DNA from: Candidatus Latescibacterota bacterium
GTDB taxonomy: Bacteria; Latescibacterota; UBA2968; UBA8231
Assembly (NCBI GenBank): GCA_007136405.1
Contig: SLHA01000120.1
Location: 1 to 34,289, forward strand
Reading direction: 5' to 3'
DNA: 34,289 nucleotides
This document shows positions 114 through 14,912 of the stretch, piece by piece. The position numbers and the translations under genes are program-made. Each line of letters begins with the position of its first letter. The first letter of the stretch is position 1. The notes below the pieces were generated by a model. The model made no database searches. It was not told where the DNA came from and saw only the letters and a program-made list of their open reading frames with translations.

Positions 114-192
114 GTCCAACAACGCATTCAACCCGGACGCGCGTAACCGCGCGCCGGTTAACGCAGACGATGGCGCGGACGCTTCGCGCCGC
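114..192 (+). repeat. attC-like hairpin repeat, copy A
   Basis: GTCCAAC (114-120) could be an integron R'' core. It is followed by an imperfect inverted repeat, AACCCGGACGCG (130-141) against CGCGCCGGTT (150-159), with one extra base on the left arm as in attC L'' boxes. The end of this block (169-192) is identical over 24 bases to 4853-4876 and itself folds (GGCGCG/CGCGCC). A canonical R' core (GTTRRRY) is not seen at the expected distance; CTTAGAC at 195-201 is the nearest. Calling it attC-derived is an inference from the pairing and from its reuse at 4.8 kb. Confidence 0.45.
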
Positions 193-243
193 CCCCTTAG
201 ACAGCAAGGGCATTCGACCGAAGGTCAAGCGAAAGGAGGTGAC

Positions 244-669
244 ATGAAATCAATGAAGCTCGTGCTGCTTCTGGTGCTGGTTGTCGCTTTGGCGGCAGTT
301 GTGCTCCAGAACCAAGCGCCCTGGCAAGTTCGTTTTCTCTGGCTAAAGGGAGAAGTGCCAGGCATCATCCTGCTGTTCCTCGCCGCAGCGGCGGGGTTCA
401 TCGCAGGACTCACTGTCGCGCTTCTGGTGAAGCGTGACGCAAAACCACACAACAGTAGACAGGAGAAAGACATGAACGAGAAAGAACTGTATCAACAGAA
501 GAAGCAGGCCCAGTTGGACGAATGGAAAGCGGAAGTAGACAAGCTTAAGGCAAAGGCCTCTGGGGCCACTGCCGACGCACAGATCGAGTTGAACAAGCAG
601 ATCGAAGCGCTCGAAGGCAAGATCGAAGAAGGCAAGACCAAGGCTTGCCGAAATTGCGGACACAGGTGA
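244..669 (+). CDS. LapA/DUF1049-like membrane protein read in frame into a coiled-coil protein
   Basis: The first ~76 residues look like a LapA (DUF1049) domain: a hydrophobic segment at about 5-21, a short loop containing NQAPWQVRF, and a second hydrophobic segment at about 38-62 followed by a basic KRD. Such proteins are small inner-membrane proteins, in E. coli linked to lipopolysaccharide assembly. AAAGGAGGT precedes the ATG ideally. The frame has no stop where LapA should end and runs straight into a second, separately initiated protein (ATG at 472). It then ends in an unrelated tail, KACRNCGHR, because of a frameshift near 642. Either this is a true LapA-coiled-coil fusion, or a base change has removed the LapA stop: the next frame has a TGA overlapping the downstream ATG. 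As read, the product is 141 residues. Confidence 0.65.
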   Translation: MKSMKLVLLLVLVVALAAVVLQNQAPWQVRFLWLKGEVPGIILLFLAAAAGFIAGLTVALLVKRDAKPHNSRQEKDMNEKELYQQKKQAQLDEWKAEVDKLKAKASGATADAQIELNKQIEALEGKIEEGKTKACRNCGHR

Positions 670-763
670 AGACGCATGGGAGTCCATCAAAGACGGTGTA
701 GAGTCCGCATGGGATTCCATGCAGTCTGCTTTCAGTGAGGCCGTCGACAAGTTCAAGAAATAG
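472..763 (+). pseudogene. small charged coiled-coil protein, frameshifted
   Basis: ATG at 472 is preceded by CAGGAGAAAGAC, a good ribosome binding site, so this is probably its own gene. It starts MNEKELYQQKKQAQLDEWKA and continues as a Lys/Glu-rich helix. The reading frame breaks near 642. Dropping one G from the AAGG at 640-643 restores an in-frame continuation beginning LAEIADTGEDAWESIKDG and ending at TAG 761-763. That tail (acidic, with repeated W-x-x-hydrophobic spacing) is what this family of ~95-residue stress-type coiled-coil proteins normally has. So the gene carries a one-base insertion, either a real mutation or a sequencing error. The exact function of the family is not known to me. 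Confidence 0.7.
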
Positions 764-765
764 CT

Positions 766-1292
766 GCCTAACACGTATATGGCCTCCGCTGTCAAGACAC
801 AAATTGATCCCTGGATAACGAAAGGTTTCATTTTCTCGTTACCGAACGTTACCTATACCCTACGCTGACGTACGCGTGCTGACTTCATTTCTAGCAGGGG
901 CAGCAACCTGGATAGCCCGGGTCTGCACCAAACACATATTGAGGCTCAACGAGCTGACGAGATGGGACTATGGCTCGTGGTACGGGTACGATGCCCGTAC
1001 GGCCTAGAAACCTGTTCGTACCCTCATCCCGGCCGACGCAAAAGTAGGAGTTCAAGCAGATGATCACTTGTCCCAGTTAGTATGCGGCTCGGAGGAGGGG
1101 CAGCGCCCGTCACGCTTCTGCTCGAGTATAGGTCAAAGATATGGCACGGCGCCGGTGTCCAATCAAAGCGTCCAGATCCGGGATTGTGCGCTATACATAC
1201 CGGTATGCATGCGTTGGTGCGGTAGATAGGTATGTGGCTCAGCGTCCTCCCCAACGGACCCAGTTAGGCGTCGGGCTCACCGACGCCGGCCG
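766..1292. other. noncoding stretch; possible attC R'' core and hairpins
   Basis: No convincing gene. GCCTAAC at 766-772, three bases after the preceding stop codon, is a canonical integron R'' core (RYYYAAC). A perfect 7-bp hairpin lies at 980-1000 (GTACGGG / CCCGTAC). At 1259-1305 there is a nested structure: CCCAGTT pairs with AACTGGG (1299-1305) around a perfect 8-bp stem GGCGTCGG/CCGACGCC, and includes GTTAGGC (1263-1269), the exact complement of the R'' core. The stretch lies downstream of the transposase gene and could be the noncoding arm of the insertion sequence, the place where IS1111-group elements keep their guide (bridge) RNA. That assignment is inference. Confidence 0.4.
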
Positions 1293-2312
1293 TTATTCAA
1301 CTGGGTAGCAAGCGTTTTTCGTCAAACGGCTGCTTTCGTTTGAGTATGTAGTAGGCACAGCGTCCCAATTTGTGGGCGACGATGGCAAGTTCTTGGGCTT
1401 GTATTTCTGCACGGCTGGGCAACAGCGGATCAGCAGAGCGGCTGCCGCGGAGAACGCCCATTTCCAATGTGCGTTACCTATTTCTTTACCTGAGTGGCAG
1501 TACGTTTTACCCGCCGATTGATGCGCGCCTTGAATGAGACGGCAGTAGGAGCAGAAGTTCTGTACGCGGGGGAAACGGTGGATGTCGTGAATCTCGTAGA
1601 GCAGGACCAGCGCCAGAATCTTGCCGACCCCGCGGATGGAACGGAGCAGATGAAAGGCCTGGGGATCATGGATTTTGGCGGTGCTGACCCAATTCAACTC
1701 TAATTGGGTCAGCAGTGGATCATAGAAGTCGATGAGCTTCAGGTTCACTTCCATGCTCTGTCGTACGGCTTCATCCGGGAAATGATCAGCCACTCCTTCG
1801 CGATTGGCCTTGTAGGCGATTTTCCGGCCGATGGGGGGCAGATTATATTGACTATTGGTGTTTCGGATGTGGGCTAGCAACTGGGCGCGCTGCCGCATCA
1901 GATGCATGCGCCGGCGTAGCAGATCGCGGGTGGCACGCATTGCGGTAGGATAGACGTATGCCATGGGAATATACCCACCCCGCAGTAGGTGAGCGATCTT
2001 GGCCGCATCGATACGATCGTTTTTGGTCTTCCCGCCGTGAATGGCTTTCATATAAAGCGCGTGTCCCAAGACAAAGGGGAGATTCTCCCGGGCACACAGA
2101 TCGGCGATCCAATACCAGGTGAAGATGCACTCGACGCAGACCACCAGGTCGGTGCGATAGGACGCAATCACGTGGAGAAAGGCTTCTGGATCGCTTTTTA
2201 TATTGCGGTGTAGCAGGACGTCACCGGCCTGGTTGAGAATACACAGGTACATGGTTTTGGCATGCAGATCAATGCCGCAGTAGTACGCGTGTTGCTGGGT
2301 GAAGAAGCGCAT
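1293..2312 (-). pseudogene. IS110/IS1111-family DEDD transposase, frameshifted near the C-terminus
   Basis: The N-terminal RuvC-like DEDD domain shows GIDLHAKT (D15), VVCVECIF (E61) and KTKNDRIDAAKIAHLL (D99, D102). The C-terminal half has the Transposase_20 helix-hairpin-helix segment SIRGVGKILA and a QSAGK motif carrying the family's serine. The protein then degenerates after VQKYK. Adding one base near 1395-1398 restores AQELAIVAHKLGRCAYY and a normal C-terminus ending KRLLPS at a TGA (1297-1299). The last ~35 residues are therefore out of frame, and the enzyme may be inactive unless the shift is a sequencing error. The ATG at 2310-2312 has a GGAGGAG ribosome binding site that can be sequestered by an upstream complementary segment (see 2314-2380). 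Confidence 0.9.
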
Positions 2313-2313
2313 C

Positions 2314-2380
2314 GGTCTCCTCCTTGTTGAGGGTTCCTTGCTCGGGATACGGCTAAGATATATCCTGCAAGGAGGAGGCC
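2314..2380 (-). promoter_or_regulatory. hairpin hiding the transposase ribosome binding site
   Basis: Read on the minus strand, GGCCTCCTCCTTG (2380-2368) can pair with CAAGGAGGAGACC (2326-2314), 12 of 13 positions, with a 41-base loop. The second arm is the Shine-Dalgarno sequence of the transposase. A transcript reading in from outside would fold and block translation. This kind of protection is known for several insertion sequences; its use here is inferred. Confidence 0.6.
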
Positions 2381-2408
2381 ATAATAAATATCAAAGCCAT
2401 GCAGCCAA
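2381..2408 (-). promoter_or_regulatory. possible transposase promoter at the IS/attC junction
   Basis: On the minus strand, TTGGCT (2408-2403), a 16-base gap and TATTAT (2386-2381) form a plausible sigma-70 promoter. The -35 box lies in the attC-like flank and the -10 box in the element. A transcript from here would start about 2374, inside the anti-Shine-Dalgarno arm, and so would escape most of the hairpin. Confidence 0.35.
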
Positions 2409-2445
2409 CGCTCGTACCTCGCGCGGCTGATGGCTGCCGTTCGGC
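2401..2445 (+). other. attC half-site, right part, with R' core GTTCGGC
   Basis: GCAGCCA (2401-2407) and TGGCTGC (2431-2437) are a perfect 7-bp inverted repeat, followed directly by GTTCGGC (2439-2445). That core is the exact complement of GCCGAAC at 3043-3049, which is how the two ends of one integron cassette match. The R'' core of this site is missing on the left, consistent with interruption by the neighbouring insertion sequence. Confidence 0.55.
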
Positions 2446-2523
2446 AATTAGCTAGGTGAGCAGGTGGAAGGCCGAATGCAGTAAAATTAATGGATATCAG
2501 TTCTCTGTGGAGGATGTGCCATC

Positions 2524-2745
2524 GTGAAAACAGAAGACTTGTTGCGAGAAATCGAATCACTCCCTGTGGAGGAGCGCGCGAGGGTAGCTGACTCGGTGCT
2601 CAAGAGCCTAAATCCACCGGAGTCGGGAATCGACAAAAAGTGGGCGGAAGTAGCCAAGCGACGGTTGGATGAGATCCAATCAGGTACGGTCAAGCCAGTA
2701 TCAGGAGAAGAAGTTTTTGAAGAGATCTGGAAACGGTTCTCGTGA
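2524..2745 (+). CDS. antitoxin of the addiction-module component family (TIGR02574 type)
   Basis: A 73-residue acidic helical protein starting at GTG, with GGAGGA at 2509-2514. MKTEDLLREIESLPVEER and ADSVLKSLNPPESGIDKKWA are the hallmarks of the small addiction-module component family. These are antitoxins with an N-terminal helix pair and a C-terminal toxin-binding tail (here GEEVFEEIWKRFS). Its TGA overlaps the ATG of the downstream toxin frame (TGATG), so the two were translationally coupled. It lies within an apparent integron cassette, and toxin-antitoxin pairs are common cassette cargo that stabilises arrays. The antitoxin is intact while its toxin is broken. Confidence 0.85.
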   Translation: MKTEDLLREIESLPVEERARVADSVLKSLNPPESGIDKKWAEVAKRRLDEIQSGTVKPVSGEEVFEEIWKRFS

Positions 2746-3041
2746 TGAGGTACTCGTTCCATCCAGAGGCTCGAGAGGAGTTTTGACGCGCAATTGATTA
2801 TTACGAAGAGCGAGAGACGACACTTGGGTACCAATTCGCGGCCGAAGTGTATGCAGCGATAGAGCGAACCTCGGCACATCCAGAGATGTGGGCCTTTATT
2901 GAAGAAGGCGTTCGCCGGTGTCTTGTCCGTCGATTCCCGTATGGGGTCATCTACTATCACGACAAACGCAACAATGAACTGATTATCCTGGCGGTAATGC
3001 ACCTTCACTGCGAACCGTACTACTGGGCTCATCGAAGCTAA
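2745..3041 (+). pseudogene. RelE/ParE-family toxin broken by an in-frame TGA
   Basis: Reading from ATG 2745 gives MRYSFHPEAREEF, then a TGA at 2784-2786, then RAIDYYEERETTLGYQFA and a continuous frame to TAA at 3039-3041. The parts match the RelE/ParE toxin fold: the start motif (F-H-P-E-A), the helix AIDYYEE, and the closing strands VRRCLVRRFPYGVIYY and ELIILAVMHLH with a terminal YWAHR. Full length would be 98 residues. TGA is used as a normal stop by other genes here, so recoding is unlikely and this is a nonsense mutation. Loss of the toxin leaves a solitary antitoxin. A shorter product from a later start (from 2847) would lack the N-terminal helices and is unlikely to work. Confidence 0.85.
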
Positions 3042-3042
3042 T

Positions 3043-3129
3043 GCCGAACAAGCCCATCAACGCCGACAGCCCAAAGCTACGCTCCTTCGTCGCTCCGCTT
3101 TCGGCTGTGGGTTATGGGCAGCGTTCGAC
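3043..3129 (+). other. integron attC-like recombination site
   Basis: An 87-base imperfect palindrome starting two bases after the toxin stop codon. R'' is GCCGAAC (3043-3049) and R' is GTTCGAC (3123-3129). Inside, GCCCAT pairs with ATGGGC and ACAGCCCAAAGC pairs with GCTTTCGGCTGT apart from one mismatch, around a short loop. Size, end cores and unpaired spacers fit attC. The cores deviate from RYYYAAC by a G, as in many environmental integrons (recalled, not checked). Confidence 0.65.
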
Positions 3130-3143
3130 GGAGAAATCAATCT

Positions 3144-4286
3144 ATGAAAATGACACCGAAACAGAATCTTATCGCCGTCCTTTCTGGCGGGGAGCCGCAA
3201 TGGATCCCCGTCTGCATGCATATTGCCAACACCAACAATCTGCCAGGGCATCTGCCACAAGCCCTCCTCGAAGAGCCTCTCGACCGGCTGCACATCAGCG
3301 AGTTCGTAGGGGGCGACATGCTCCATGAAGTCAGCGCAGTCCGCACGAAGGCGAACACAGGCTGGGACATCAAGACTGAGGCTCGCGGGGATATGCGTAT
3401 TTCGACATTGACCACAACGGAAGGCGCTCTGACGCAAGAAGTGATGACTGCCGCAGTTTCCACCCCCGTCTATGATCCCTTACCTGAGGGGCACATTCTT
3501 CCCGGGCCGATCATGAACAGTGTCCATAAAGCCTTTTTCGTAAAGCAACTGTCGGATTACCGGATTCTGAAGTGCTATTACGAAACCCTGACGTACGAAT
3601 GTGACAATAATCTGATCGCCCGCGAGCAGGCGCGCGTAGCTGAGAAAGGCCTTTGCGTTTTGGGTGGCGGGCCTTCCAGTCCGCTGTATGCCTTGGTGTC
3701 AAGTCATGTCGGGATAGAGCGATTGAGCCTTGACCTGTTCGACGATTCGGAGGAGGTGGAGTCAACAATGCAGGTGATGACAGACACTGCCTGTCGCTGG
3801 TACCGCACAGCCGCCGCTTCGCCCTGTGAAGTAATACGTTGCACCGAAGATCTGGATACCAAACTGGTTTCACCCGATTGGTTCAGACGTTACGCCGTGC
3901 CGGCGCTCACGAAATACGCCCGAATCTGTCATGCGGCAGGGAAAAAGTTTGTCATTCATATGTGTGGTCCCGTCAGAGATTTTCTCCAGGACATTAAGGC
4001 AACCGGGGCGGATGCCATCCATTGCCTCACCGCACCTCCCATGGGGAACACCGCCATCCAAGAGGCACGCAGAATGCTACAAGGCCATATGGCGGTCATG
4101 CTGCGCGTGGATGCTCATCTGCTGTTGAGCGGAAGTGTCGGGGAAATTGATTGTGCCGTTGCGAATATGTGCAGCGAATTGGGCGACTGGAATAATGTCC
4201 TGGCAATCATACCATGTGGACGCGCTCCCCTTGAAAACATCCGTCGCGTTATTGATCAATTCCGTAAACAAAACCACCGGAGATGA
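3144..4286 (+). CDS. uroporphyrinogen decarboxylase (URO-D)-family methyltransferase carried as a cassette
   Basis: A 380-residue protein starting at ATG 3144, with GGAG at 3130-3133. It opens with MTPKQNLIAVLSGGEPQWIPV, the standard start of the URO-D superfamily TIM barrel. Near residue 272 it has VIHMCGPVRDF: the H-x-C-G zinc motif of the MtaA/MtbA/CmuA type, in which a zinc-bound thiol takes a methyl group from a corrinoid protein. True HemE enzymes lack this motif, so a methyltransferase is more likely than haem synthesis. The substrate is unknown. The gene is flanked by attC-like sites whose cores complement each other (TTCGAC at 3124; GTCGAAC at 4293), so it looks like a mobile gene cassette, large for that class. 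An in-frame upstream ATG at 3114 lies within the attC and is less likely. Confidence 0.8.
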   Translation: MKMTPKQNLIAVLSGGEPQWIPVCMHIANTNNLPGHLPQALLEEPLDRLHISEFVGGDMLHEVSAVRTKANTGWDIKTEARGDMRISTLTTTEGALTQEVMTAAVSTPVYDPLPEGHILPGPIMNSVHKAFFVKQLSDYRILKCYYETLTYECDNNLIAREQARVAEKGLCVLGGGPSSPLYALVSSHVGIERLSLDLFDDSEEVESTMQVMTDTACRWYRTAAASPCEVIRCTEDLDTKLVSPDWFRRYAVPALTKYARICHAAGKKFVIHMCGPVRDFLQDIKATGADAIHCLTAPPMGNTAIQEARRMLQGHMAVMLRVDAHLLLSGSVGEIDCAVANMCSELGDWNNVLAIIPCGRAPLENIRRVIDQFRKQNHRR

Positions 4287-4292
4287 AATGGA

Positions 4293-4352
4293 GTCGAACC
4301 ATCGGCTCGTGTAGACACGCTAATCGCGCGCCGCACAGCCGCGTCGTTATGT
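4293..4352 (+). other. short integron attC-like site
   Basis: A 60-base site directly after the methyltransferase gene. R'' is GTCGAAC (4293-4299), L'' is CGGCTCGTG and L' is CACAGCCG, pairing with one extrahelical C on the left arm as in classical attC. R' is GTTATGT (4346-4352). R'' is the exact reverse complement of the GTTCGAC that opens this cassette at 3123. Confidence 0.65.
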
Positions 4353-4374
4353 GTCAAAACAAAGGAGACTAAAA

Positions 4375-4620
4375 ATGGGACCAGAATATTTTTGGATGGG
4401 TGGAATGTGGATATTCCCAATCATTATGATTGTTGTAATGTTGATTGTTGTTTACCTGATATTTGGACGAGGCAATATCAGACCACCATGGTGTGGTCCC
4501 AGTCAATATTACGATAATGTGAAAAGCTCAGAACCCGCTTTGGAAATCTTGAAAAAACGATATGCCAAAGGCGAAATTACAAAAGAAGAATTTGAACAAA
4601 TGAAAAACGATATTATCTGA
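4375..4620 (+). CDS. SHOCT-domain membrane protein
   Basis: An 81-residue protein from ATG 4375, with AAGGAGA at 4362-4368; an earlier in-frame start lies inside the attC site. It has one membrane helix at about residues 10-32 (WIFPIIMIVVMLIVVYLIFG), a short linker, and a C-terminal SHOCT domain beginning LEILKKRYAKGEITKEEFEQ. SHOCT domains are short helical pairs thought to support oligomerisation; the role of such small membrane forms is not established. The gene is noticeably AT-richer than the chromosome around it, as expected for cassette cargo from another source. Confidence 0.85.
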   Translation: MGPEYFWMGGMWIFPIIMIVVMLIVVYLIFGRGNIRPPWCGPSQYYDNVKSSEPALEILKKRYAKGEITKEEFEQMKNDII

Positions 4621-4631
4621 GGCGAATGAAA

Positions 4632-4799
4632 ATGACTGATTCAGATTTAGATAGAGCATGTCTAAGCAAACAAGAACAAAATTGGGAAAATACATTTACG
4701 AATTACCCCGATATATTTGGAAACTAACCTAGCAAAGCGGCATTAAAGGCTGCTGAAACATTTAAGAAAGACGGCTCAACATATTATACGAGAAGGTAG
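4632..4799 (+). pseudogene. N-terminal remnant of a SAM-dependent methyltransferase
   Basis: The frame from ATG 4632 reads NWENTFTNYPDIFGN, then a TAA (4725-4727), then PSKAALKAAETFKKDGST, then TAG at 4797. This is the N-terminal stretch that precedes the S-adenosylmethionine-binding loop in small class I methyltransferases (W-x-x-x-F...P-D-x-F-G...S...A-A-x-x-F-K-x-x-G). In the next frame the end reads ILYEKVGQAT, faintly like the expected ILELGAGQG, and the gene then stops at the repeat at 4809. It is thus broken by a nonsense codon and a frameshift, and truncated by the hairpin repeat. It follows the SHOCT gene and shares its AT-rich composition. Confidence 0.6.
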
Positions 4800-4808
4800 G
4801 ACAAGCTA

Positions 4809-4876
4809 CTTGAACCCGGACGCGGGCAAAGCCCGCGCCGGTTAAGCTGGGCGATGGCGCGGACGCTTCGCGCCGC
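4809..4876 (+). repeat. attC-like hairpin repeat, copy B
   Basis: CTTGAACCCGGACGCGGGC pairs with GCCCGCGCCGGTTAAG around a three-base loop, again with one extra base on the left arm. It is a second copy of the unit at 114-192: the stem-loop is rebuilt with different bases while the 3' end (4853-4876) is identical over 24 bases. Covariation of the stem argues that the fold matters. The site truncates the methyltransferase remnant. Confidence 0.5.
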
Positions 4877-4882
4877 GCCATC

Positions 4883-5003
4883 GGGGCGGCGGATTACCCT
4901 CCGCTTTCTGTCCGGCGCTTCGCGTCGGCCATCAAGCGGATGCAGCGGTCGGCCGTCCACGCGAGCAAGCTCGCGCGTCCGCCCGCCGCTGATCCGCCGC
5001 CCC
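4883..5003. repeat. long GC-rich inverted repeat
   Basis: GGGGCGGCGGAT (4883-4894) and ATCCGCCGCCCC (4992-5003) are a perfect 12-bp inverted repeat enclosing ~97 bases with further internal pairing. GTTCGAT follows immediately (5004-5010) and would serve as an R' core, so this may be a long attC. No gene is apparent in 4877-5148. Confidence 0.45.
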
Positions 5004-5148
5004 GTTCGATGTGCGCCTTCGGCGCAGAGATTAGATGATTATCAACATAGGAAAAATATTATATGGGTTCGCGCTTCGCGCGGCATAAACTGCGCCAAAA
5101 TACGCCTCGCAGATTAAGAAAATGTTTGAAGATAGGAGGCGATACCAC

Positions 5149-5274: not shown

Positions 5275-5592
5275 ATGATGGAAATCGACAGCACCGATGC
5301 GCAGAGGATCTGCCTATGCGGGAGCTTCCGCTTTGTGGATGACATGATGTATCCCTCTGTAATAGGCGTTCGCGCCAATGACGACTTCACGCTCCACGTC
5401 GAGTTCGATAACGGGGACGAGGGCATTCTCGACATGAGGCCTCACCTGGGGCTCGGGGTCTTCCAGCGCATTGCGGAGATCGATGCGTTCAAGACGGCGC
5501 GCGTGGCATTCGACACTGTCCAATGGGACAACGGAGTCGATCTTGATCCTGAGTTTGTACATGCCCGATGCCGAAAGATTCAGAGAGCATAA
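5275..5592 (+). CDS. DUF2442 family protein
   Basis: A 105-residue protein. The recognisable DUF2442 domain starts at MYPSVIGVRANDDFTLHVEF and runs through FDNGDEGILDMRP, GVFQRI and DTVQWDNGVDLDPEFVH to the end. GTGGAGG lies just before the ATG at 5275, which decides that start. The family core begins only at residue ~25, so a start at 5344 or 5347 would give the usual ~80-residue length. DUF2442 genes usually pair with a DUF4160 gene in mobile, toxin-antitoxin-like units; no DUF4160 partner is present, only the short ORF at 5149. Function unknown. Confidence 0.75.
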   Translation: MMEIDSTDAQRICLCGSFRFVDDMMYPSVIGVRANDDFTLHVEFDNGDEGILDMRPHLGLGVFQRIAEIDAFKTARVAFDTVQWDNGVDLDPEFVHARCRKIQRA

Positions 5593-7695: not shown

Positions 7696-9123
7696 TCAGG
7701 CCAGGTGACGACGCGCCGACTGCAGGATGCGGTCGATCTCGCGCTCCGTGTCGGGGTCCAGGGGGATGGATTCGTGCGAGGCGAGCAGCTGCTCCTTGGC
7801 GGCGATGCAGCGCTGATGCATGCTGGTACCGCCGTCTTCGCGCCAGGCGTCCCAGTAACGGCGGTCGAGCAGTTGCGGGAACCAGAGTTCCTGCCGGAAA
7901 TGGCGCGCCGTATGCTCGTTGTCCAGAAAGCTGCCGTCGTGCCCGACCTGACGGATCACGTCCAGCGCCAGGTGCTCGTCATCCACCTGGAAGCCCTCCA
8001 TGAGGCGTTCGATGTATTGCACGATCTCGTGTTGCAGGAGCAACATCGGCAAGGACGCGGCCTGGTCCACGCCACAGATACCCAGATGACCGAAGATGTC
8101 CGCGCCCGCCAGCACTCCGGAAAGCAGCGTCATCCCCGCCTCCATGCCGGCCTGGGCGTCCGGCAGCTTGCTGTCTGTGAGCCCGACGTTGATGTACACG
8201 GGAAGACCGTAGTGCCTTCCCAGCTGGGCCATGGCCATGGCCATCAATGCCTGTTCCGGACCGGCGAAGATCAGTTGCGTCGTGCGCATGTCGAAGGCGT
8301 GCGGTATGCCGCCGTAACAGACAGGTAGACCGGCACGGATGAGCTGGGTGATGCAGACGCCGGCCAGGATCTCCGCGTTCTCCTGCGCCAGCGTTCCCGC
8401 CAGGGTGGCCGGCGCCGTGGCGCCCACCTGGGCCATGGGACCGATGGGCACCGGCAGCGACAGGCGCGCCGTCTCGAAGAGCAGGTCGATGCCGTCGAAG
8501 GGGAACTTCAACGGGCTGATGGGTTCCAGAAAGGGATAGGCCAGCGGGTAGCGCGTCGCCTCCGTCTCGTTGCCGCGCACCGCTACCATCAGTTCCAGCA
8601 CATACCGGGCGGAGGCGCGGTCCGAGAACCAGAAATGGATGGGTTTGGTGGTGTGGCGCAACTGCGCCGCGGCAACTTCTACACAGCGGTACGCGGTGGG
8701 GATCTCGTGCGGATCCGCCATGGCGCCCACCAGGTCGATGCGCGGCAGCGCGTCTCCCAGGCGGGTAGCGGTCACCACATCGTCCAGACAGGCGTAGCGC
8801 CGCTGCGTGCCCAGGTCGTCTACCCAGAGCGCCTCGCCGGCTATGGAATTGTAGTTGCGCTCGCCTGCACCGAAACGTGCCTGCCGGTTGTGGTCGCGTC
8901 CATACAGGGTGAAAGTCTTGCCGGCCGATTGCAGCGAACTCTCGATCAGGGCGGCAGGAATGAAGACGTGTGCGGTGGTGTCCTCCACCCGGGCGCCGGC
9001 GGATCTGAAGCGCCGGCGTACTTCATCATGGGGTACGCGCACACCCACAGTAGCCAGGATCTCCAGCGAGGCTCCATGGATGCTCTCCAGCTGCTGTGGG
9101 GTGAGACTGCGTAGGGTCAGCAT
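7696..9123 (-). CDS. MttB-superfamily (trimethylamine methyltransferase-like) protein, non-pyrrolysine
   Basis: A 475-residue protein starting MLTLRSLTPQQLESIHGASL and showing the MttB barrel throughout (GEALWVDDLGTQRRYACLDD, FLEPISPLKFPFDGIDLLF, QVGHDGSFLDNEHTARHFR near the end). Pyrrolysine-containing MttB genes have an in-frame TAG; this frame has none, so it belongs to the larger non-Pyl group. Characterised members (MtgB, MtpB, MtcB) demethylate glycine betaine, proline betaine or carnitine onto a corrinoid protein. No corrinoid protein or reductive activase is in the window. It is the first gene of the MttB, URO-D, amidohydrolase operon. An in-frame upstream start (to 9219) exists but adds a low-complexity extension; the start chosen follows family length. 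Confidence 0.85.
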   Translation of the reverse strand: MLTLRSLTPQQLESIHGASLEILATVGVRVPHDEVRRRFRSAGARVEDTTAHVFIPAALIESSLQSAGKTFTLYGRDHNRQARFGAGERNYNSIAGEALWVDDLGTQRRYACLDDVVTATRLGDALPRIDLVGAMADPHEIPTAYRCVEVAAAQLRHTTKPIHFWFSDRASARYVLELMVAVRGNETEATRYPLAYPFLEPISPLKFPFDGIDLLFETARLSLPVPIGPMAQVGATAPATLAGTLAQENAEILAGVCITQLIRAGLPVCYGGIPHAFDMRTTQLIFAGPEQALMAMAMAQLGRHYGLPVYINVGLTDSKLPDAQAGMEAGMTLLSGVLAGADIFGHLGICGVDQAASLPMLLLQHEIVQYIERLMEGFQVDDEHLALDVIRQVGHDGSFLDNEHTARHFRQELWFPQLLDRRYWDAWREDGGTSMHQRCIAAKEQLLASHESIPLDPDTEREIDRILQSARRHLA

Positions 9124-9253
9124 GGTCTCTGCCGTCTGTCGTTGCGGTCTCTTCGCGTGGCCAGGCCCCGAATTCCCGAACATCGAACCCTGGCAGATCG
9201 AATGGGCTGCGGGCGCCATCCAGGGTCCGCCGCGACGCCCCCAGGGACCGAAC

Positions 9254-9325: not shown

Positions 9326-9479
9326 CCGCCGAGATGGCGCCCCGATCGCCGCGACGTTCTACCATACTACGTCAACTCAGCGGTCCGATCAAGCGTGCCG
9401 GGCCTGGCGGAGGCCGCCCTGTCAGCGCACCAGCCGCGACCACACCGGACCGCTTCCTACGGCGGGCACCATGCTGCAA

Positions 9480-9605
9480 GACCAATCGTCCGGACAACAA
9501 ACCCAACCGTTCGAATTTCAGCTCTGCCGTTCGAACTACAACAGGCCCAACCGTTCGGCCAACAAACCCAACCGTTCGAATTACTTACAGGCCCAATCGT
9601 TCGAA
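9480..9605 (-). repeat. six degenerate tandem repeats copied from the sulfatase 3' end
   Basis: On the minus strand the motif TTCGAACGGTTGGG occurs six times with variation, with starts spaced 21, 20, 24, 21 and 25 bases. The first copy (9605-9591) encodes FERLG near the sulfatase C-terminus. The others follow the stop codon and would still read FERLGLL or variants in some frame. Units are joined by TTTGTTG or CCTGTTG linkers. Confidence 0.85.
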
Positions 9606-11048
9606 CTGCTCTGGCGGCGCGGCGTTGGCCCGCATGAGGTCGACCATCAGTCCGGTCATGCGTTTCTCGACGGCGGCATTCCGGATGGGGCGTTCCTGGT
9701 GCGGGTCGTCTTCCAGATCGAAGAGCAGCGTGCCGAATTTGAACAGGTCGCGTTTGCTGGTGGCGTCGCACCTCAAAGTCGGCAGTCCCTTGGTGAAGGG
9801 GAAGGGGTCGGACAGTCGGGCGCTGCGCAACTGGTCCTGACCGAAGAAACCGCGCATGTGCGTCGGCATGAGCGTATAGTTGAACAGTGGTGCGTTCGCG
9901 GGCCTGGCCGGGGCGCGCATGTAGACATAGCGGCCGTCGGTGACGTTGACGTGTCCGCCGTGAATGCCGAACAACCCGGCTTCGCGAACGGGTGTGTCGG
10001 CGGCCACCGTCGAGGCCAGGGGCACACCCTGGCAAGCCGGTGGCAGGGGCTGCCCGAACCACTCCAGCAGCGTGGGCGCCAGGTCGATCGTCTGCACGAG
10101 TGCGGCGCGACGTTCGCCGCGGGCTCCCGAACGCGGATCCCAGATGAACAGCGGTGTGTGCGCCACCTCGTCGTAGAATGGCTGCCAGCACTTGGCCCAC
10201 ATGCCATGCTCACCCAGCATGAAGCCATGGTCTGTGTTGACGATCAGCATGGTGTCGTCCCACAGGTGCAGCGCGTCCATGCGCTCGAGTATCGTTCCCA
10301 GCCAATGGTCGCACATGCTGACCAGCGCGAAGTATTCGCGCCGACAGTGCTCCACCTGCTCCGCAGGCTGGTTGACGGCGGCGTAGGGAGGCCAGTCAAA
10401 GTGCGGTCCCCGGTAGTCCCCGGGGTAGAGATCCTTGTACTTCCGTTGCGTGAAAAACGGTTCATGTGGATCAAAGGTCTCGATGTGCAGAAACCAGTCG
10501 TCCTGACTGCCGTTTTCGTCCAGGAAGTCCAGGCCCATGCGGAAGGTGTTGGCCTGGGGTTGATCTTCTTCACGGCTCATGTACTGTCGGTTGACCCAGT
10601 CCTGCCGCCAGTGCCTGTTGCTGTGGCGGTTCACGGACACCGTTACCGGAATATCCGGATCTCGCACCTGCCCCTTCCAGGGATCTCCCTCCTGTCCGCG
10701 GGCTATTTCCCAGGTCCCGTAGCGCGTGTGGTAGGTTGCTCCGCCGTCCTCCCAGTAATGGTAGTGATCGCTGGCCAGGTGGGTGTGGATGCCGTGTTCC
10801 TGCAGGATGCAAGGCATGGAATCGTCAAAGGGTTCCAGCGGTCCCCACGAACGGTGCAGGAAGTTGTAACGCCCGGTGTGCAATTCGCGCCGCGCCGGCA
10901 TGCAGGGCATGCTGGCCACATAGGCGTTGTCGAATGTGATCGTGCGTTCCGCCAGCCGCCGGAAATTCGGCGCGTGGACGTAGTCGCATCCGTACGGCGG
11001 CAACATGCGCCGGTTGAGCGAGTCGAACATGATCATGATGGCTTTCAC
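9585..11048 (-). CDS. formylglycine-dependent sulfatase (arylsulfatase superfamily)
   Basis: A 487-residue alkaline-phosphatase-fold enzyme. MIMFDSLNRR near the start provides the first metal aspartate (D9). SMPCMPARRELHTGR carries the C-x-P-x-R signature, with Cys49 as the residue converted to formylglycine. MLIVNTDHGFMLGEHGMWAK gives the second metal-site D-H-G motif. No signal peptide is visible, so it is either cytoplasmic or exported by an unrecognised route; many catabolic sulfatases are secreted. The cysteine-type motif would require a maturase (FGE or anSME), not seen unless the radical SAM protein at 32718 serves, which its motifs do not suggest. Phosphonate monoester hydrolases share the fold and motif and cannot be excluded. 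The last residues, QFERLGL, are coded by the first unit of the downstream repeat array. Confidence 0.88.
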   Translation of the reverse strand: MKAIMIMFDSLNRRMLPPYGCDYVHAPNFRRLAERTITFDNAYVASMPCMPARRELHTGRYNFLHRSWGPLEPFDDSMPCILQEHGIHTHLASDHYHYWEDGGATYHTRYGTWEIARGQEGDPWKGQVRDPDIPVTVSVNRHSNRHWRQDWVNRQYMSREEDQPQANTFRMGLDFLDENGSQDDWFLHIETFDPHEPFFTQRKYKDLYPGDYRGPHFDWPPYAAVNQPAEQVEHCRREYFALVSMCDHWLGTILERMDALHLWDDTMLIVNTDHGFMLGEHGMWAKCWQPFYDEVAHTPLFIWDPRSGARGERRAALVQTIDLAPTLLEWFGQPLPPACQGVPLASTVAADTPVREAGLFGIHGGHVNVTDGRYVYMRAPARPANAPLFNYTLMPTHMRGFFGQDQLRSARLSDPFPFTKGLPTLRCDATSKRDLFKFGTLLFDLEDDPHQERPIRNAAVEKRMTGLMVDLMRANAAPPEQFERLGL

Positions 11049-14752: not shown

Positions 14753-14912
14753 CGTCCAGCCGGAGTGTCCGCAGCCATGGCCAAGGCGCCCGCGTCCGGC
14801 CTGAGTGTCCGCAGCACTGGCCGTGGCGCTTGTGTCCGGCCGGAGTGTCCATAGTAATGGCCACGGCGCCCGCGTCCGGCCGGAATGTCGGGAGGAATGG
14901 CACCAGGGTCCG
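14753..14912. repeat. four tandem 40-bp repeats between convergent genes
   Basis: Units start at 14753, 14793, 14833 and 14873, an exact 40-base period. Each begins YGTCC followed by a variant of GGCCGGAGTGTCCGCAG and then a conserved ATGGCC...GGCGC block. The array starts two bases after the DUF5107 stop codon and ends 27 bases before the 3' end of the glycyl radical enzyme gene. Copies differ by several bases, so the array is not very recent. No terminator-like T-run is present. Confidence 0.92.

What the first reader, a model, noticed from the sequence alone, without database searches (positions are those of the whole stretch)
2401..4352. Two integron-like cassettes with perfectly matching ends
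GTTCGGC (2439) opens a unit that closes at R'' GCCGAAC (3043). GTTCGAC (3123) opens the next, which closes at R'' GTCGAAC (4293). In real integrons the R'' core of a cassette's attC and the first bases of the same cassette are complementary, because they were joined in the free circle. Finding this twice, with attC-sized hairpins in between, is strong evidence for a cassette array although no integrase is visible.
Basis: partly seen in the sequence, partly recalled or inferred. Interest (0 to 1): 0.75.

Follow-up and report, generated by a model that had tools for sequence, protein, structure and literature searches.

The report
Degraded integron cassette array, integrase elsewhere
The start of this stretch is a real, partly decayed array of integron gene cassettes (small mobile genes stored in a row) in an uncultured bacterium whose integrase gene lies on another contig of the same genome; it is a new example of a well-known system rather than a new kind of system.

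Summary
All four 7-mers are at the stated positions, and the perfect R''/first-bases match occurs in both units. A covariance model trained on 25 attC sites from other genomes put C38:3043-3129 first (35.9 bits) and C38:114-175 second (30.0 bits) in the whole 4.29-Mb genome. Four relatives without an IntI over cut-off (24.5 Mb) gave no hit. The 4293-4352 site scores only 11.9 bits, but its circular-cassette form folds as a textbook attC (chance about 6e-4). The attC in front of the first unit was missed: an IS1111-type element split it, and rejoining its flanks gives a clean attC. Relatives of that IS on Nitrospirota, Vibrio and Catenovulum plasmids sit at the same attC position. The refutation test fails: the genome has a full-length integron integrase (469 bits, cut-off 265) on contig C41 with a recognisable attI 168 nt past its stop. 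The array is partly decayed (frameshift, in-frame stop, degenerate sites). A 152-bp ORF-less mini-cassette with a GAT core is repeated at an orphan attI, after attC sites and at two sites outside any array. Verdict: new member of a known kind, a sedentary chromosomal integron split by assembly; the contig itself is CALIN-like.

The parts
114..175 (+). attC1: R'' GTCCAAC, L arms TTCAACCCGG/CCGGTTAA, crossover G at 169 followed by ATGGCG (GAT core)
   Evidence: Model R1 30.0 bits, window E 2.3e-5, second-best hit of the whole genome; 83% identical over 58 nt to a Pseudoduganella array attC
170..196 (+). Short deletion form of the ORF-less mini-cassette (first 24 and last ~5 nt), ending at the next cassette boundary (C)TTAGAC
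   Evidence: 96% identity to the ends of 4853-5004; the same short form lies at C123:951-977
197..772 (+). Cassette A: LapA-domain / sll1863-family stress protein (ORF 244-669 continued in another frame 644-763; frameshifted), R'' GCCTAAC at 766-772
   Evidence: sll1863 profile positions 1-55 in ORF 244-669 and 56-93 in frame 644-763; LapA just below its cut-off
773..2392 (-). IS1111-attC-type insertion sequence (transposase 1293-2312, subterminal inverted repeat ATGGCCTCC near both ends, ~520-nt noncoding region downstream of tnp), inserted between R'' and L'' of attC2
   Evidence: NF033542 169 bits over cut-off 140; relatives on three plasmid backgrounds end at the same attC position; single copy in the genome
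2393..2445 (+). 3' part of attC2 (L'' GCCATGCAGCC, L' GGCTGATGGC, R' GTTCGGC)
   Evidence: R1 13.7 bits although the 5' end is cut off; joined to 766-772 it folds into a complete attC
2440..3122 (+). Cassette B body: addiction-module antitoxin (2524-2745) and ParE-like toxin (2745-3041) with an in-frame TGA
   Evidence: PF09720 61 bits; PF05016 34 bits when the TGA is read through
3043..3129 (+). attC3: R'' GCCGAAC, L'' GCCCATCAAC, L' GTTATGGGC, R' GTTCGAC
   Evidence: R1 35.9 bits, genome-wide E 1e-4, top hit of the genome; circular form folds as attC, z -4.2
3124..4345 (+). Cassette C body: intact URO-D / MtaA-CmuA-like protein, ORF 3144-4286 (380 aa)
   Evidence: PF01208 57.8 bits
4293..4352 (+). 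attC4: R'' GTCGAAC, L'' CGGCTcGTG, L' CACAGCCG, R' GTTATGT
   Evidence: Weak R1 score 11.9 bits; circular form folds as a full attC with one extrahelical base; shuffle frequency 6e-4
4347..4853 (+). Cassette D: small membrane protein with SHOCT domain (4375-4620)
   Evidence: PF09851 44.4 bits
4796..4853 (+). attC5, degenerate R'', good L arms, crossover G at 4853 followed by ATGGCG
   Evidence: R1 18.8 bits, window E 0.013
4853..5004 (+). ORF-less 152-bp mini-cassette with GAT core; its own attC6 at 4927-5004, followed by TTCGAT
   Evidence: R1 21.0 bits; copies with the same ends at C8:6372-6537 and C160:18758-18900, and at C152:1-121 (cut by the contig end)
5005..5600 (+). Possible last cassette (DUF2442 protein 5275-5592); no closing attC recognised, so the array end is uncertain
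   Evidence: PF10387 40.7 bits; no attC hit after 5001 in this part

Best explanation
Window 1-~5000 is the cassette array of a sedentary chromosomal integron. Each cassette is a gene plus a folded attC site. The integrase IntI, encoded on contig C41, cuts the folded attC of a free circular cassette and joins it at attI or at another attC between G and TT (G^TT). That is why the first bases of each cassette are complementary to the R'' of its own attC. In this integrase clade attI and the array lie downstream of intI, so the end of C41 and the start of C38 are probably two sides of one assembly gap. The array is partly decayed: an IS1111-attC element interrupts attC2, two cassette genes are broken, and several core sites are degenerate. 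Shown: the attC sites, the integrase with an attI in the same genome, the IS at an attC, and the broken genes. Inferred: that C38 and C41 are physically joined, that IntI acts on these sites, and that the remaining cassettes can still move.
For: Top two genome-wide hits of an attC model trained only on other genomes, with no hits in four relatives lacking an IntI over cut-off and strong hits in two IntI-bearing ones. Full-length IntI of 469 bits. attI core GTTGAAC 168 nt after the intI stop, where relatives have theirs at 166-183 nt. Relatives' arrays lie downstream of intI on its strand. R''/first-base complementarity in two cassettes plus stems, below 1e-3 each by shuffling. attC2 restored by joining the IS flanks, and relatives of the IS sit at attC R'' cores elsewhere. 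Toxin-antitoxin cassettes here and on C123.
Against: No integrase on the window's contig, and physical linkage to C41 is not shown (no overlap between the contig ends). attC4 and attC5 score weakly. The cores after attC1 and attC5 are GAT, not GTT. The genome is a 165-contig draft, so binning error cannot be excluded, although C38, C152 and C41 share mini-cassette or attI sequence.
Confidence: 0.93

Rival explanations
1. A true CALIN: an orphan attC cluster whose integrase was lost, unrelated to the C41 intI, which would serve another array.
For: No intI on the window's contig; decayed sites and broken genes; another cassette cluster exists on C123.
Against: intI sits 303 bp from a contig end, on the side where relatives carry their array, and C38 begins inside an array. 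The first C41 cassette starts GTTGAAC, and the first C38 attC has R'' GTCCAAC, 6/7 complementary.
Confidence: 0.35
2. Chance hairpins and terminators between ordinary small genes.
For: A perfect 7-mer pair alone is not rare (5-9% of shuffles); attC4 alone scores 11.9 bits.
Against: Top genome-wide covariance-model hits, clustered on one strand; attC-specific IS at one site; integrase in the genome.
Confidence: 0.02
3. The attC-like sites belong to a dispersed repeat family (MITE or REP) and not to an integron.
For: The 152-bp element also lies outside any array, in C8 and C160.
Against: attC2, attC3 and attC4 are not copies of it. Its boundaries coincide with attC and attI crossover points, including the orphan attI of C152. 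The repeat-like element is itself best read as an ORF-less cassette.
Confidence: 0.04

Closest known systems
Sedentary chromosomal integrons with attI and array downstream of intI (Chlorobi, Planctomycetota, Actinomycetota and others in this search)
   Same: IntI 58-75% identical, attI at the same distance from the stop, + strand arrays, attC anatomy
   Different: Contig-split, short, decayed; IntI not of the same clade as the integrases of its own family's genomes
CALIN as defined by IntegronFinder (PMC9024848)
   Same: At least two attC and no intI on the contig; small size
   Different: The genome does hold intI and attI, and the CALIN state is plausibly an assembly effect, which that paper describes for drafts
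IS1111-attC insertion sequences (ISKpn4, ISPst6; Tetu and Holmes 2008, Post and Hall 2009, cited in PMC11187229)
   Same: DEDD transposase, noncoding region downstream of tnp, one end of an attC as target
   Different: Closest plasmid relative found is only 67% identical (Candidatus Manganitrophus); direct comparison with ISKpn4/ISPst6 not made
Cassettes without ORF and insertion at non-classical attG sites (PMC8618304 legend; Loot et al. 2024 cited in PMC12901181)
   Same: The mini-cassette has no obvious gene, ends at G^ boundaries and is found outside the array
   Different: GAT core at its own 5' end; several copies within one genome, including at an orphan attI

Membership tests
Integron (genome level) | Integron integrase gene of the IntI subfamily | tested here: met
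   C41:304-1317(-), TIGR02249 469 bits vs cut-off 265, residues 23-337
Integron (genome level) | attI adjacent to intI | tested here: met
   GTTGAAC 168 nt after the stop with the same context as relatives' attI
Integron (genome level) | At least two attC sites in a cluster with spacing under 4 kb | tested here: met
   35.9 and 30.0 bits at 3043 and 114, with weaker sites between and beyond
Integron (genome level) | Array physically linked to intI/attI | tested here: inconclusive
   Both are at contig ends with consistent orientation; no overlap between C38 and C41
Integron (genome level) | IntI recombines these sites | not testable with these tools
   Needs a suicide-conjugation or in vitro assay
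attC site (3043-3129) | RYYYAAC/GTTRRRY-like R boxes, L stem with extrahelical base, hairpin | tested here: met
attC site (4293-4352) | Covariance-model score clearly above background | tested here: not met
   11.9 bits, window E 0.6; structure and complementarity support it nevertheless
IS1111-attC group | IS110-family transposase with longer noncoding region downstream of tnp and subterminal inverted repeats | tested here: met
   rule stated in PMC11187229
IS1111-attC group | Insertion at one fixed end of attC sites | tested here: met
   Empty-site fold; same junction GTG|TTRRRY-like in four relatives
IS1111-attC group | Phylogenetic placement with ISKpn4/ISPst6 | not tested
   No reference sequences were fetched

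The most novel reading that the evidence does not exclude
A 152-bp ORF-less integron cassette with a GAT (not GTT) core has multiplied within this genome, entering an orphan attI (C152), positions directly after attC1 and attC5, and two sites outside any array (C8, C160). It would be a miniature cassette that spreads by IntI alone.
Probability: 0.45. Interest if true: 0.5.

Novelty: new member of a known kind. Interest (0 to 1): 0.35.

Why it matters
It adds a chromosomal integron to a phylum in which only 7 of 64 held genomes carry an IntI above cut-off, with an integrase from a clade that crosses many phyla. The locus catches several processes together: cassette decay, an RNA-guided type of IS using attC as its target, and a cassette without a gene that appears at attI, at attC and at sites outside the array. 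The last would allow a direct test of how far cassettes leave integrons.

Tried and rejected
Rfam gave no hit in the window, so an attC model was built from 25 sites in intI-bearing loci. A first alignment of 43 sites mixed two spacer classes and was not used for the model. A strict pattern scan found only 3043-3129. C41's 12 kb gave no convincing attC upstream of intI, so the array is not on that side. The weak 9557-9630 hit (16.6 bits) lies in a run of short direct repeats and is probably chance. A 20-bp match of the C41 end to C58 lies in an ordinary transporter locus and was dropped. The mini-cassette was not found in the other 63 phylum genomes or in plasmids.

Full report
Observation. 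A perfect 7-mer alone is not impressive: 9% and 5% of dinucleotide-preserving shuffles contain one. A perfect R'' followed by an attC-like stem with correct spacers and GTT was seen in 0.06% and 0.08% of 5000 shuffles.

Independent attC test. Rfam gave no match. I took the IntI found elsewhere in this genome, fetched 80 loci encoding relatives, extracted attC sites from their arrays, aligned 25 of one spacer class and built a covariance model (R1). The training stems covary strongly, and the model recovers attC sites in loci not used for training. No site from the window was used. In the whole 4.29-Mb genome the best hits are C38:3043-3129 (35.9 bits, E 1e-4) and C38:114-175 (30.0 bits). With filters off the window also shows 4927-5001 (21.0), 4802-4853 (18.8), 2392-2439 (13.7, 5' part missing) and 4293-4352 (11.9), all on the + strand within the first 5 kb. 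Four relatives without an IntI over cut-off (G038, G039, G050, G051; 24.5 Mb) gave no hit at E <= 10. G063, which has a divergent IntI, gave none either. The IntI-bearing G054 and G057 gave hits of 35-51 bits. Scores near 20 bits also occur as partial hits in G059, so 4927-5001 needs its other support.

The split site. The unit starting at 2439 seemed to lack a proper attC in front. It has one: R'' GCCTAAC at 766-772, then an IS110-family element, then L''-L'-R' at 2393-2445. The two flanks joined fold into a complete attC. The transposase (1293-2312, -) is over the NCBIfam IS110 cut-off, and its long noncoding region lies downstream of tnp, the IS1111 arrangement (PMC11187229). Its relatives on plasmids of Candidatus Manganitrophus, Vibrio campbellii and Catenovulum all end in ...TATxxGTG running straight into GTTAGGC, GTTCGGC, GTTATGT or GTTAGGT, that is, at the R'' core of an attC. 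[quoted passage not shown] So an element with its own targeting rule also treats this sequence as an attC.

The second site. 4293-4352 would not pass a model threshold. As it stands in the array its fold is unremarkable, because R' belongs to the next cassette. In the circular form it folds as a seven-pair R stem, a five-pair L arm, one extrahelical base and four further pairs. Its folding energy is not exceptional (z -0.8), so the support is the shape and the complementarity, not the energy. I accept it as a weak attC.

The integrase and attI. The genome has a full-length integron integrase on C41:304-1317(-), 469 bits against a cut-off of 265. The contig ends 303 bp past its stop. In relatives (L045, L047, L053, L054, L060, L061, L069 and by eye L046) a GTTRRRY-like core that starts the first cassette lies 166-183 nt after the intI stop, and their arrays follow on the same strand. 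C41 has GTTGAAC at 168 nt in matching context. The start of C38 is therefore a reasonable continuation, and the first C38 attC has R'' GTCCAAC, 6/7 complementary to GTTGAAC; physical linkage is not shown. Contig breaks inside integrons of draft genomes are a known effect (PMC9024848), and attI directly downstream of intI is described for archaeal integrons (PMC9668308). The IntI branches within a multi-phylum clade and not with the integrases of its own family's genomes, which suggests horizontal acquisition; the bootstrap of that tree had not fully settled.

Cassette content and decay. Cassette A encodes an sll1863-family stress protein whose profile is split between two frames. Cassette B is an addiction-module antitoxin with a ParE-like toxin that has an in-frame TGA. 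Cassette C is an intact URO-D/MtaA-like protein. Cassette D is a SHOCT-domain membrane protein. Toxin-antitoxin cassettes are typical of integrons (PMC8618304). G+C is 50-56% in the first 6 kb against 61-66% from 6 to 9 kb. The broken frames may be real or consensus errors.

Mini-cassette. Window 4853-5004 is a 152-bp sequence without an obvious gene (some frames are open, but it is short and G+C-rich), repeated in C8, C152 and C160, with short deletion forms at C38:169-195 and C123:951-977. The three full-length copies start at G^ATGGCG and end at CCCCG^; the C152 copy is cut by the contig end. Its own attC has R'' GGCCATC, 6/7 complementary to its first bases GATGGCG. In C152 it follows an orphan copy of the attI region exactly at the crossover G, and in C38 copies follow attC1 and attC5 at the crossover position. 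It was not found in 63 other phylum genomes or in plasmids. I read it as an ORF-less cassette; the copies in C8 and C160 could be insertions at non-classical sites of the attG kind (Loot et al. 2024, cited in PMC12901181). That last step is inference.

Verdict. It is a new member of a known kind: a decayed sedentary integron array, CALIN-like on its contig, with integrase and attI in the same genome. The organism's name could not be read from the tools; the phylum is represented by 64 held genomes.

Noticed in passing
window 4853-5004; G000:C8:6372-6537, C160:18758-18900, C152:1-121; short forms C38:169-195, C123:951-977: 152-bp ORF-less mini-cassette with GAT core repeated in this genome only, found at an orphan attI, after attC1 and attC5 and at two sites outside any array.
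   Followed up: partly
L135 (G000:C152) 121-215: Orphan attI-like copy, 83% identical to the C41 attI region over 87 nt, without an intI beside it; next to an MFS-type transporter gene.
   Followed up: partly
L127 (G000:C123) 900-2600: Second cassette cluster: BrnT/CopG toxin-antitoxin pair closed by an attC (26.4 bits), a further BrnT-like ORF, and just upstream a stretch that resembles the 3' end of a group II intron (from memory; Rfam gave no hit).
   Followed up: partly
window 644-669 and 2745-3041: Frameshift in the sll1863-family gene and in-frame TGA in the ParE-like toxin gene: decay of the array or consensus errors.
   Followed up: partly
window 3144-4286: A URO-D/MtaA-CmuA-like protein of 380 aa as an integron cassette, near an MttB-like methyltransferase gene at 7696-9219.
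   Followed up: no
window 9477-9610: Short direct repeats around CCAACCGTTCGAA(T/C)T, four copies 21-44 nt apart, between two genes.
   Followed up: no
window 14754-14901: Three to four tandem copies of a ~40-bp unit (GTCCGGCCGGAGTGTCC...) between two genes.
   Followed up: no
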